Assembly: GCA_029856045.1 (NCBI GenBank)
Contig: JAHQWG010000025.1
Span: 94,904 to 158,903 of the forward strand
Origin: Promethearchaeia archaeon
GTDB taxonomy: Archaea; Asgardarchaeota; Lokiarchaeia; Sigyniarchaeales; SOKP01
Direction: 5' to 3'
DNA: 64,000 bases
Part shown: positions 41,163-45,393 of the stretch, in pieces
How positions within the stretch are numbered: the first letter of the stretch is position 1
Layout of the letters: each line of letters starts with the position of its first letter
Program-made: the position numbers and the translations under genes
Notes under the pieces: generated by a model
What the model was told of the DNA's origin: nothing
Database searches by the model: none
The model's input: only the letters and a program-made list of their open reading frames with translations

Positions 41163-42749
41163 ATGAGTAAGAAAAAAGAAGAGCCAATGAAAAATTTAAA
41201 AAATAACGAAAATGAAGATAAAGAAAAAGAAATGGAGTCCAGAAAGGAGGAAGAAGAAAGCGAAAAACCAATTGTAGTTAAAGCAGAAGCTTATAAAACG
41301 ATTATATTATATGCAAGCAGGTATGCTAACCAAGCAATACCTCCAGCTGAATGGAAAGAGATCTATGGAATTTTAATTGGGCATATTACTGATGCATTGG
41401 TTATTGTCGAAAAAGCTGAGGCTCTAACATTTGGGCATAGCACCGATGTTCAATTAGATGAAAGACATTATGGTTTTATTGAACAAATTGAAAATAAATT
41501 ATATGAAGAAAACCAAGGTCGTTTTATTGTGGGTTGGTTTCATAGTCATCCCGGTTTAGGACTATTTTATTCATATATTGATTTAATAAATCACATCGGC
41601 TTTCAAGGGAAAAATAAGGATTCTTGTGGATTAGTTTTTGATCATACTTTGTTGGGAAAAAAAAAGAGAGAAAAAGATGCTAATTCAGAACATATGATTA
41701 CTAAATATGACACTGGGTTTGAAATATATCGAATGAATAATGTAAATATGGATATCAATGATCCAGAATTTGACAATAACTATCATAAAGTAGATTATTT
41801 TATTGATGGATTAAATAAATTCTTTTTTGCGAATGTGATGACTGAGCTATCTGCTTTAGCTTCAAGTGGAAAACCATTACAATCAGCATATGGAGAAAAT
41901 GTTTCTAGTTATACACCGCAATTCACTCATTATCCAGAAAAAGTCCATGATGATTTTAATAAAGAATCAGAAGTTAAGGGTAAAAGTATTTCTCAAGAAA
42001 CTATGCCTGAATTAATCGAGATACCTTTAGAGATAGACGGAGAATTTGATGTGAAAGATATTTTTCGTGACGCCTCTGAAATTATGAAGTCAGAGAAACA
42101 TGATAACACTAAAAAATTACAAATGGCTGATGAATTATTTTTTGAGGGGAATCAAGCATTTAGACAAAAAAATTCATTTGAAGGTGTTGAAAAATATAAA
42201 AAAGGTTTGAAAATTCTTAAAGAAATAAATGAAATTGATAAGGTAATGGAAAATTTAAGTAAATTAAGTGAGAAATGTTTACATAACAACCATTATCCAT
42301 TAGCTGAACAAAATTCTGAAGAATTATTCAAGATTGCTGAATCAAATGGTTCTTTATTTTTTATGGGCGGAGCGAAATATATCATTGGATTTATTAAAAC
42401 AATAAGAAATGAAATAAAGGAAGGATTAGAAGACATTCAACAAGCTGCTATATTCTATGAAAATACTCTGGATTTTTATGGAACAGGTTTATGCAATCAA
42501 AAAATTGCAACAATTTATTCTACTCATCTAAAAGATATTGATAGGGCTTCCCTATTTTTTCTTGAAGCACTAAAAAATTTTAATAAAGCTCTTGATAAGA
42601 TACATCCATTAAGAATAACAGTTTGGGATAGTCCAAAACAAATTAAGGAAAGAATTAATAATCTTAAAGAAACTATTAAAAAAAATCTAAATCAGATAAC
42701 CGACCAAAATGTTAAAAGTAAAATTGAATCAGAACTAAAAAATTTCTAA
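41163..42749 (+). CDS. JAMM/MPN metalloprotease (Rpn11/CSN5-like) fused to TPR-like repeats
   Basis: EIYGILIGHITDALVIVEKAE and intact JAMM GWFHSHPGLGLFYSYID; C-terminal TPR-like helices (ADELFFEGNQAFRQKNSFEGVEKYKKGLKILKEI). Confidence 0.88.
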   Translation: MSKKKEEPMKNLKNNENEDKEKEMESRKEEEESEKPIVVKAEAYKTIILYASRYANQAIPPAEWKEIYGILIGHITDALVIVEKAEALTFGHSTDVQLDERHYGFIEQIENKLYEENQGRFIVGWFHSHPGLGLFYSYIDLINHIGFQGKNKDSCGLVFDHTLLGKKKREKDANSEHMITKYDTGFEIYRMNNVNMDINDPEFDNNYHKVDYFIDGLNKFFFANVMTELSALASSGKPLQSAYGENVSSYTPQFTHYPEKVHDDFNKESEVKGKSISQETMPELIEIPLEIDGEFDVKDIFRDASEIMKSEKHDNTKKLQMADELFFEGNQAFRQKNSFEGVEKYKKGLKILKEINEIDKVMENLSKLSEKCLHNNHYPLAEQNSEELFKIAESNGSLFFMGGAKYIIGFIKTIRNEIKEGLEDIQQAAIFYENTLDFYGTGLCNQKIATIYSTHLKDIDRASLFFLEALKNFNKALDKIHPLRITVWDSPKQIKERINNLKETIKKNLNQITDQNVKSKIESELKNF

Positions 42750-42862
42750 TAATTATTTTATCAGAAATTCATTTTTCATTTAAAAAAAATTAAATTTAAT
42801 GGTTAATTGTATTAATGTAAAGTATTTCTTAATTTAAATAAACTAATTTTTTGTGATTTGAA

Positions 42863-43504
42863 ATTCCTAGAAGAAAAGCTAAAATAAAGTTTAAGAGAAA
42901 GATCGCTTGTATCCACCTTGAACCGGCAGGAGATGTGTCTAATAGCTTGCAACCACTTTGTATTTGTTCAACAAGAGAATTAGTGTTAGGTTCTCATGGC
43001 TCTTCGGGTGCATATGTATGTCAGGTATGCGAATATTATGAACCGAATTCAAATATAACAATAAATGAAGTATATAAAAAAAGCAAAAAGATGGCTGAGA
43101 AAAAAGTTCCGATAGTAAAAGAAGTAGAACTTAAAGATTTAGAAGCTGAATTATTAGAAGATATTGATTTGGATGTAAGTGAATTTGAAGAGGAGGAGGA
43201 GGTGGCGACTGAAATTAAATATAAAAAACGCTCAAAAGGAACTTCAAAAGTAAGTAAAAAAGAATTTAAAGAACTTACATCAGAGTGCCCTTATTGTGGC
43301 GAATTTTTTGAAGATCTTTCTGCTCATAAGGCCATTTGTGAATTTGCTCCTTCTGAAAGAGGGATAAAAGCATTAAGAGGAAGAAAACCCATACCTCCAA
43401 CTGAAAAACCAAAAGATGAACAGAAAGGAGAAGTGTGTCCTTATTGTGGGAAAACTTTTTTGAGATTAAGCAGGCATAAATGTAAAAAAGCTCCAAAGAA
43501 GTAA
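42863..43504 (+). CDS. Zinc-finger protein with two C2HC/C2H2-like fingers (possible AUU start at 42863; ORF track start GTG 42935)
   Basis: CPYCGEFFEDLSAHKAIC and CPYCGKTFLRLSRHKC plus N-terminal CIC...CQVC. In-frame basic upstream extension PRRKAKIKFKRKIACIHLEPAGD after GTGA + 6 nt + ATT. Confidence 0.7.
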   Translation: MPRRKAKIKFKRKIACIHLEPAGDVSNSLQPLCICSTRELVLGSHGSSGAYVCQVCEYYEPNSNITINEVYKKSKKMAEKKVPIVKEVELKDLEAELLEDIDLDVSEFEEEEEVATEIKYKKRSKGTSKVSKKEFKELTSECPYCGEFFEDLSAHKAICEFAPSERGIKALRGRKPIPPTEKPKDEQKGEVCPYCGKTFLRLSRHKCKKAPKK

Positions 43505-43565
43505 AATTGCAATAGAAATCTGGATTTCTTTAAAAGTTTATAAGAAATAAATTATAGAGATTAAG

Positions 43566-44486
43566 ATGCCAAATCAAGAAAGTATATATTACTGTCTTCC
43601 AGTCTTTAGACCTCCTTCAGAAGCATATTCCTTATTGATTCAGGCTACTGAAGGTTGTTCATTTCGTTGTACTTTCTGTATGTCAAATTTACGTAAGAAA
43701 TTCGTAATTAGAGACACAAAAGATATAAAGAAAGATTTGGATATTGGAAGAAAAATACATGGACTTAATGTAAAAAAGATTTTCTTCTTGGATGGAAACG
43801 CGATGGTAATGCCCACGGAAAAATTATTAGAAATAACGAAATATGCAAGAAAAATATTTCCCTTTGTAAGATGTGGTGTTTACGCTCATGCGAAAGATAT
43901 TCTTAAGAAATCGGATGAGGAATTGAGAGAATTAAATAAGGCAGGTCTGGGAATTGCCTATGTTGGATTCGAGTCTGGATCTAATAAACTACTTAAAATG
44001 ATGAATAAGCATACAACTAAGGAAGAACTAATTTCAGCGAGTAAGAAATTAATGAAATCAGGTATTACTCTTTCTGCTACATTAATATTAGGGTTAGGGG
44101 GTGATAATAAAGATTTATCTGAACTCTCTGCCATAAATTCAGCGGACTTAGTGAATAAAATCTGCCCAGATGATGACACACTTTGGTATATTGCTTGTTT
44201 GACCCTCATGGTACCTCCTGGTACTGAACTTTTTGAAAGAAAAGTGAAAAATGAATTTCACGAGATGGAAACTCTGGATATTTTAAAAGAATTATACCAA
44301 TTTATTGAAAATATTAATTTTAAGAATAATCCTAACGCAAATTGCGTTTTTCGTACTAATCACGCTTCTAATTATTTAGCTATAGGAGGTATTTTAGATC
44401 AAGATAAATTTAAAATTCTTAAAACAATAAGAATGGGTTTAGAAAATCCGAATATTTTAAGACCTGATTCCTATCGAGCATTGTGA
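43566..44486 (+). CDS. Radical SAM protein
   Basis: EGCSFRCTFCMSNLRKKF (CxxxCxxC); GIAYVGFESGSNKLLKMMNKHTT. Confidence 0.93.
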   Translation: MPNQESIYYCLPVFRPPSEAYSLLIQATEGCSFRCTFCMSNLRKKFVIRDTKDIKKDLDIGRKIHGLNVKKIFFLDGNAMVMPTEKLLEITKYARKIFPFVRCGVYAHAKDILKKSDEELRELNKAGLGIAYVGFESGSNKLLKMMNKHTTKEELISASKKLMKSGITLSATLILGLGGDNKDLSELSAINSADLVNKICPDDDTLWYIACLTLMVPPGTELFERKVKNEFHEMETLDILKELYQFIENINFKNNPNANCVFRTNHASNYLAIGGILDQDKFKILKTIRMGLENPNILRPDSYRAL

Positions 44487-44505
44487 GGTCTAGTAAGGAA
44501 AATCA

Positions 44506-44640
44506 TTGGAAAGATCAATAGTAGGATTATTAGTTTCATACTTTAGTATTACAATTTTTATAGGTTCGATTTTAGAATTTATTTATGCGTTAATATCTTC
44601 GTTTACAGAAATAATATTATCAAAATTGGGTAAAAATTAG
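44506..44640 (+). CDS. Possible small TM protein (44 aa, TTG start)
   Basis: Open frame LERSIVGLLVSYFSITIFIGSILEFIYALISSFTEIILSKLGKN*; AAGGA upstream. Confidence 0.3.
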   Translation: MERSIVGLLVSYFSITIFIGSILEFIYALISSFTEIILSKLGKN

Positions 44641-44652
44641 TTTTTTATCTCT

Positions 44653-45393
44653 TTACTCTTCAAAAATTACAGTCTTAGTTTCTTTTATGTAAACTCTTAT
44701 CCATGAATCTTTTTCCTTAATCATTTCTTTGATAAGTTTTTCAAGTTCAAATTCATTAATTAGGCATTTTTGACTTAATTCATAAAGGGACATTATATCA
44801 GAGGAAGCCCCGATTTCATTTACTTTCTTTTTAACTAATTTAGACTGTAATTCTTTAAAAAATTCACTAAAAATTTTAAGATTATCAGATTTAGCTTTCA
44901 AAATCAAGGAAGTGGTTGTTTCAATAACATTGTTATAGTTTAAGATATCGTATATCCCTAACAGCTCATATGATTTTTTAATATAATCTAAAACAAGATT
45001 TATTCGTTGATTGATATCTTCTAGAAGCGATTTGCTTTTTTCTTTTATTATTTGATTCTTAATATTCACATATTTTTTTAATACTTCTTCTAAATTTTCA
45101 GTAGTAAGGGTTATGTAATTCATATTTAATAATTTAATTTCATAAGAATTGCGGAGTTCTAAGATTTTTTGATTTATTAATTCACTTAATTCATTAAATG
45201 TCTTTATATATGTCCCAAATCCAAAATCTTTATTTTCTCTACGTAGTGTTAAGGCAGATTGACATTTATTCAAAGCAGATAGTAAATCATTTTCTGATAA
45301 CTTTTGCTCAATAAAATTTTGATAAAAATCCAACTTTTGTTCGATATCTTTTTTACTCTTAAATTCTTTCGTTAACTCTCTGAAGTATTTCAT
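44653..45393 (-). CDS. Helical-repeat protein with PCI-like C-terminal winged helix
   Basis: C-terminus IMSLYELSQKCLINEFELEKLIKEMIKEKDSWIRVYIKETKTVIFEE follows the PCI winged-helix pattern; N-terminal TPR-like helices. Confidence 0.55.
   Translation of the reverse strand: MKYFRELTKEFKSKKDIEQKLDFYQNFIEQKLSENDLLSALNKCQSALTLRRENKDFGFGTYIKTFNELSELINQKILELRNSYEIKLLNMNYITLTTENLEEVLKKYVNIKNQIIKEKSKSLLEDINQRINLVLDYIKKSYELLGIYDILNYNNVIETTTSLILKAKSDNLKIFSEFFKELQSKLVKKKVNEIGASSDIMSLYELSQKCLINEFELEKLIKEMIKEKDSWIRVYIKETKTVIFEE

What the first reader, a model, noticed from the sequence alone, without database searches (positions are those of the whole stretch)
41163..45393. MPN (JAMM) and PCI-like proteins in one neighbourhood: possible archaeal lid/COP9/eIF3-like module
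Seen: an intact JAMM motif (HSHPGLGLFYSYID) in a protein with TPR-like repeats at 41163-42749, a zinc-finger protein, a radical SAM gene, and a convergent gene at 44653-45393 with N-terminal helical hairpins and a C-terminal winged helix. Established: the 26S lid, COP9 signalosome and eIF3 are built from MPN and PCI (helical repeat + winged helix) subunits. Inference: this could be a minimal MPN + PCI pair in an archaeon. The PCI call rests only on pattern similarity by eye.
Basis: partly seen in the sequence, partly recalled or inferred. Interest (0 to 1): 0.78.

Follow-up and report, generated by a model that had tools for sequence, protein, structure and literature searches.

The report
PCI-like protein beside archaeal JAMM protease
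In a Lokiarchaeon, a complete ubiquitin-cutting type enzyme (JAMM/MPN with TPR-like repeats) sits next to a small protein whose predicted shape most resembles the PCI scaffold proteins of the eukaryotic proteasome lid, COP9 signalosome and eIF3, but nothing yet shows that the two work together.

Summary
41163-42749 encodes an MPN+ protein: Pfam JAB 5e-11, JAMM residues invariant in 31 orthologues, Rpn11/CSN5/BRCC36 as top structural matches, then a TPR-like helical array. 44653-45393 has no significant single-sequence hit. Its family's AlphaFold2 model is confident (pLDDT 90.9): helical hairpins running into a C-terminal winged helix. All 50 top Foldseek matches in the PDB are chains of lid, CSN or eIF3 entries, eIF3a PCI first. 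The family consensus scores Pfam PCI just above its cut-off. Limits: Foldseek E is only 3e-3, TM 0.26-0.37, and the window's own sequence does not reach PCI.

The neighbourhood is conserved: in 35 named Lokiarchaeal loci the PCI-like gene lies convergent behind JAMM-ZnF(-rSAM). But it sits in a roughly 12-gene syntenic block of unrelated genes, is confined to one Lokiarchaeal family and has been lost several times; JAMM-ZnF is the tighter unit. The genome encodes ubiquitin, E1-like, E2 and five JAB proteins.

Reading: a JAMM isopeptidase with a lineage-specific PCI-like accessory protein. A physical MPN-PCI complex is possible but unshown; nothing makes it a lid/CSN/eIF3 ancestor.

The parts
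41163..42749 (+). JAMM-TPR protein, 528 aa (MPN+ metalloprotease with TPR-like C-terminal helical array)
   Evidence: Pfam JAB 5.2e-11; PDB Rpn11-like 6fjv 1.9e-8; AlphaFold2 model and Foldseek; orthologues in most relatives
41358..41360 (+). E66, catalytic glutamate of the JAMM motif
   Evidence: invariant in 31 orthologues
41541..41582 (+). JAMM zinc site HSHPGLGLFYSYID (residues 127-140)
   Evidence: sequence; H127, H129, S137, D140 invariant
42066..42743 (+). TPR-like helix-pair array, residues 302-527
   Evidence: AlphaFold2 model; Pfam TPR_12 sub-threshold E 0.018
42935..43504 (+). zinc-finger protein, constant neighbour of the JAMM gene; coding probably begins further upstream, near 42863
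   Evidence: conserved companion in families f1 and f2; conserved IPRRK... N-terminus in frame upstream
43566..44486 (+). radical SAM protein, 306 aa; present in most loci, missing from some
   Evidence: Pfam Radical_SAM 1.8e-19; synteny
44653..45393 (-). PCI-like protein, 246 aa (helical hairpins + C-terminal winged helix)
   Evidence: AlphaFold2 pLDDT 90.9; Foldseek top 50 all from eIF3/CSN/26S proteasome entries; consensus vs Pfam PCI 7.4e-5
44803..45354 (-). helical-hairpin region, residues 14-197
   Evidence: AlphaFold2 model
44656..44796 (-). winged helix, residues 200-246
   Evidence: AlphaFold2 model; PCI profile match at residues 172-225 of the family consensus

Best explanation
The cluster encodes a zinc isopeptidase of the Rpn11/CSN5 type (MPN+ domain plus TPR-like tail) that probably removes ubiquitin-type modifiers, together with a zinc-finger protein that is its constant partner gene. 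Behind them, convergent, lies a lineage-specific accessory protein of PCI-like architecture (helical hairpins plus winged helix), which most likely acts as a protein-protein scaffold or adaptor rather than a DNA binder. Shown: intact JAMM site, MPN fold, a confidently predicted helical + winged-helix fold whose best structural matches are lid/CSN/eIF3 chains, a conserved position in relatives, and a ubiquitin/E1-like/E2 set in the same genome. Inferred: deubiquitinase activity, the scaffold role, and any functional link between the two proteins.
For: JAMM residues invariant and JAB over cut-off; MPN+ enzymes are the top fold matches; ubiquitin, E2 and E1-like ThiF plus E2 in the same stretch in this genome. 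PCI-like: AlphaFold2 pLDDT 90.9; 50 of 50 top Foldseek matches from lid/CSN/eIF3 entries; consensus vs Pfam PCI over cut-off; 13 of 33 members match PCI at E <= 1. Same convergent position in 35 loci, and it stays beside ZnF where the radical SAM gene is missing. Recognition helix net acidic on average.
Against: No Foldseek match at E <= 1e-3 and TM only 0.26-0.37. The window sequence itself has no PCI hit. A consensus sequence tends to raise profile scores. The adjacency is part of a long syntenic block. TPR is sub-threshold by profile. No activity or interaction data.
Confidence: 0.55

Rival explanations
1. A true MPN + PCI complex: the PCI-like protein binds the JAMM-TPR protein (perhaps with the zinc-finger protein) and regulates or targets it, a minimal archaeal counterpart of lid/CSN architecture.
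For: PCI-like fold beside an MPN+ gene; fixed position in 35 loci across strongly diverged sequences; the gene was already present in the family's common ancestor on the most economical reading of the tree.
Against: Convergent, not co-transcribed; lost in several lineages that keep JAMM-ZnF; unrelated genes are conserved just as well around it; no co-folding or interaction data.
Confidence: 0.2
2. Neighbours only: the PCI-like protein has an unrelated job and stays in place because this whole block rearranges slowly.
For: CinA-like, prenyl synthase, YfcE, CoA-transferase, FMN reductase and membrane-protein genes keep the same order in the same loci; PCI-like gene is dispensable and on the opposite strand.
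Against: Where the radical SAM gene is missing the PCI-like gene still sits directly beside ZnF, and no full-length homologue was found away from this locus.
Confidence: 0.45
3. The protein is not PCI-related: a helical bundle with a generic winged helix of the kind widespread in this genome, matching PCI by convergence.
For: PCI-type winged-helix matches occur in several unrelated architectures here; weak winged-helix-only similarity to the UFL1-like protein; TM below 0.5.
Against: All top 50 PDB fold matches are from lid/CSN/eIF3 entries although winged-helix transcription factors are abundant in the PDB (abundance from general knowledge); PCI is the best Pfam family for the consensus.
Confidence: 0.3
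4. The PCI-like protein is a DNA-binding regulator.
For: It has a winged helix; wing region mildly basic (mean +2.9); weak HTH_24 or E2F_TDP matches in a few members.
Against: Recognition helix net acidic on average, range -3 to +2; fold matches are not transcription factors.
Confidence: 0.08

Closest known systems
Rpn11 / CSN5 / BRCC36 MPN+ (JAMM) metalloproteases, including archaeal CsRpn11 of Caldiarchaeum (PMC6043591)
   Same: MPN fold, complete JAMM site, organism with ubiquitin, E1-like and E2 genes
   Different: C-terminal TPR-like array in place of the short Rpn11 tail; zinc-finger protein as constant neighbour gene; not adjacent to the ubiquitin genes
PCI subunits of proteasome lid, COP9 signalosome and eIF3 (eIF3a PCI structure 4u1d is the first match)
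   Same: helical hairpins continuing into a C-terminal winged helix, the bipartite architecture described in PMC1274264; best matches by fold and by family consensus
   Different: smaller (246 aa); TM 0.26-0.37; single window sequence below PCI detection; restricted to one Lokiarchaeal family; no known complex
PCI-type winged helices of archaeal ESCRT-linked kinases and Asgard proteins (PMC10936438); Asgard UFL1/DDRGK1 homologues (PMC10183829)
   Same: PCI-type winged helix in archaea; the winged-helix part of this family's profile weakly matches roughly 790-800-aa proteins like the UFL1-like one
   Different: those are multi-winged-helix or membrane-kinase architectures, without one helical array plus a single C-terminal winged helix

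Membership tests
JAMM/MPN+ metalloprotease (PF01398) | E + HxHx7SxxD zinc site | tested here: met
   E66, H127, H129, S137, D140 invariant in 31 orthologues
JAMM/MPN+ metalloprotease (PF01398) | Profile match over the curated cut-off and MPN fold | tested here: met
   42.8 bits vs 22.5; Foldseek Rpn11/CSN5/BRCC36, best E 8e-8
JAMM/MPN+ metalloprotease (PF01398) | Isopeptidase activity | not testable with these tools
   needs an assay
PCI domain (PF01399) | C-terminal winged helix preceded by continuous helical hairpins | tested here: met
   AlphaFold2 model, pLDDT 90.9; definition from PMC1274264
PCI domain (PF01399) | Pfam PCI match over the cut-off | tested here: inconclusive
   window sequence: no match; 13 of 33 members at E <= 1, best 3.3e-4; consensus 23.3 bits vs 22
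PCI domain (PF01399) | Same global fold as solved PCI proteins (TM > 0.5) | tested here: not met
Lid / COP9 / eIF3-type MPN+PCI complex | Physical MPN-PCI assembly through winged helices | not testable with these tools
   single-chain prediction only
Lid / COP9 / eIF3-type MPN+PCI complex | MPN+/MPN- heterodimer | tested here: inconclusive
   five JAB genes in the genome, one with Ser replaced by Thr in the motif; no second MPN gene in this neighbourhood
Lid / COP9 / eIF3-type MPN+PCI complex | MPN and PCI genes conserved together across lineages | tested here: not met
   PCI-like gene absent from six loci with no room for it and from family f2, JAMM kept

The most novel reading that the evidence does not exclude
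A Lokiarchaeal MPN+ TPR isopeptidase and a PCI-fold protein form a physical complex: an archaeal MPN-PCI assembly in a domain of life where, according to PMC6043591 (2018), PCI complexes were not known.
Probability: 0.18. Interest if true: 0.88.

Novelty: new variant of a known kind. Interest (0 to 1): 0.5.

Why it matters
Lid, COP9 signalosome and eIF3 are all built from MPN and PCI subunits, and the archaeal study read here states that such PCI complexes were not known in archaea (PMC6043591). A predicted PCI-like helical array + winged helix protein encoded beside an MPN+ protease in a Lokiarchaeon gives a concrete, expressible pair of proteins with which the origin of that architecture can be tested. 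Even if the two do not interact, the protein suggests that the bipartite PCI architecture, or a convergent look-alike, exists in Asgard archaea.

Tried and rejected
Single-sequence searches of 44653-45393 in Pfam, NCBIfam and PDB found nothing significant. ParD antitoxin matches (13 members, best 2.3e-6): rejected as a short helical-hairpin resemblance (about residues 21-60), because the family consensus drops to E 0.013 while PCI rises. UBZ-type ubiquitin-binding fingers for the zinc-finger protein: considered; profile vs PDB gives FAAP20 at E 0.77 only, so not claimed. A UFL1/DDRGK origin of the winged helix: weak WH-only similarity (hhalign probability 25%), not claimed. A DNA-binding role: judged unlikely from the acidic recognition helix.

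Full report
Setting. The window lies on contig C25 of a 3.34 Mb genome.

Observation. All genes are at the stated coordinates. The 528-aa product of 41163-42749 matches Pfam JAB (5.2e-11, residues 35-146) and, in the PDB, the Rpn11-like protein 6fjv, the Caldiarchaeum enzyme of PMC6043591. E66, H127, H129, S137 and D140 are invariant among 31 orthologues, so the active site is intact. The AlphaFold2 model has an MPN domain, a disordered linker (244-311) and a regular helix-pair array at 302-527. Its 50 best PDB matches are MPN chains, chiefly Rpn11, CSN5 and BRCC36. Pfam TPR is only sub-threshold (E 0.018), so 'TPR-like' rests mainly on the model.

The PCI call. The 246-aa product of 44653-45393 has no significant single-sequence match. 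With an alignment of 33 family members its AlphaFold2 model is confident (pLDDT 90.9, pTM 0.78): helical hairpins over residues 14-197 continue into a winged helix at 200-246. A whole-PDB Foldseek search returned 50 of 50 top matches from eIF3 (including 43S/48S initiation complexes), COP9 signalosome and 26S proteasome entries, led by the eIF3a PCI structure 4u1d (E 2.8e-3, probability 1.00). Chain identities were read from entry titles and chain letters only; they appear to be PCI subunits. The bare statistics are modest: no hit at E <= 1e-3, TM 0.26-0.37, rmsd up to about 20 A. That would fit a match in local structure along a solenoid with different overall curvature, but it does not establish the same global fold. 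Independently, Pfam PCI matched 13 of 33 members at E <= 1 (best 3.3e-4), and the family consensus scored 23.3 bits against the 22-bit cut-off (E 7.4e-5), ahead of every other family. A consensus sequence tends to raise such scores, so this counts as support, not as a membership pass. The PCI domain has been described as a winged helix preceded by TPR-like helical hairpins (PMC1274264); that architecture is met here. The recognition helix has a mean net charge of -1.2 (range -3 to +2), which argues mildly against DNA binding.

Neighbourhood. BLAST-level homologues of 44653 occur in 17 of 61 related genomes, at the JAMM locus (in G002 the gene lies on two contig ends). Sixty-one JAMM loci from named MAGs (L102-L162) show JAMM-ZnF(-rSAM), with the PCI-like gene convergent behind it in 35. 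Where the radical SAM gene is not found (for example L109, L112, L131, L138, L139, L140) the PCI-like gene is beside ZnF. In six loci (L110, L113, L136, L143, L149, L154) only about 80-150 bp separate the radical SAM gene from the next gene, so the PCI-like gene is truly absent there; many other loci end at a contig edge and say nothing. A profile search of 197 genomes of the phylum found full-length homologues only in one family (genera g1, g2, g8) and short or winged-helix-only similarity elsewhere. On the JAMM tree the genera with the gene lie on both sides of a well-supported split, and the label needs four changes: on the simplest reading the gene is old within the family and was then lost several times.

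Caution on adjacency. The same loci also keep CinA-like, prenyl synthase, YfcE, CoA-transferase, FMN reductase and several membrane-protein genes in the same order. General synteny conservation therefore explains much of the adjacency, and the PCI-like gene is convergent rather than co-directional with JAMM. The stronger link is JAMM-ZnF: co-directional in most loci and still neighbours in family f2, where the PCI-like gene is absent.

Genome context. The genome encodes ubiquitin (5.6e-9), an E2 (1.6e-24), an E1-like ThiF protein (2e-56) within about 1 kb of the E2, and five JAB proteins. A substrate system for a JAMM isopeptidase therefore probably exists.

What is known. CsRpn11 is a biochemically studied archaeal JAMM deubiquitinase; the same paper says PCI complexes were not known in archaea (PMC6043591). 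PCI-type winged helices have been noted in kinases of archaeal ESCRT loci, and HTH/PCI domains in Asgard ESCRT-associated proteins (PMC10936438). UFL1/DDRGK1 homologues in Asgard archaea are published (PMC10183829). My searches of the open-access library found no report of a PCI-like protein beside a JAMM gene in archaea. Subscription papers and preprints were not searchable, so novelty is provisional.

Verdict. The JAMM gene is a TPR-tailed new member of a known family. The neighbour is probably a PCI-like accessory protein, which is unusual for an archaeon. The step to a minimal MPN+PCI complex is not shown and needs co-folding or a pull-down.

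Noticed in passing
L097:5902-8268 (G000:C36, same genome): 788-aa protein with a cysteine-rich N-terminus and several winged helices; Pfam PCI 2.6e-16, E3_UFM1_ligase 5e-13, DDRGK 3e-9, and PDB DDRGK1-UFL1 fusion 5.6e-5. Asgard origin of UFL1/DDRGK1 is published (PMC10183829).
   Followed up: partly
L101:5381-8215 (G000:C25, about 37-40 kb): Two tandem JAMM genes of 471 aa each with long C-terminal coiled-coil-like tails; one has an intact motif, the other has Thr in place of the motif Ser (HSHPRLGLIFTNMD). 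Possible active/altered MPN pair.
   Followed up: partly
L163, L164, L167: Three JAMM paralogues in one short stretch, two of them in tandem and one on the opposite strand.
   Followed up: no
window 42863-42937: The zinc-finger gene's conserved N-terminus (IPRRK...) is in frame upstream of the GTG at 42935 but has no ATG/GTG/TTG start in the window and close relatives; ATT may be the start, or there is a small frameshift relative to L104.
   Followed up: partly
L098:8826-11771 and L099:7234-11664: A HEAT-repeat protein and a 1476-aa coiled-coil protein (near an actin-like gene, by eye) each carry a PCI-type winged-helix match just under Pfam's cut-off, so such winged helices occur in several architectures of this genome.
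   Followed up: no
L211:2651-5340 (G000:C47): An E1-like ThiF protein (2e-56) and an E2 (UQ_con) gene on opposite strands within about 1 kb, with a short HAD-like gene (by eye) between them.
   Followed up: no
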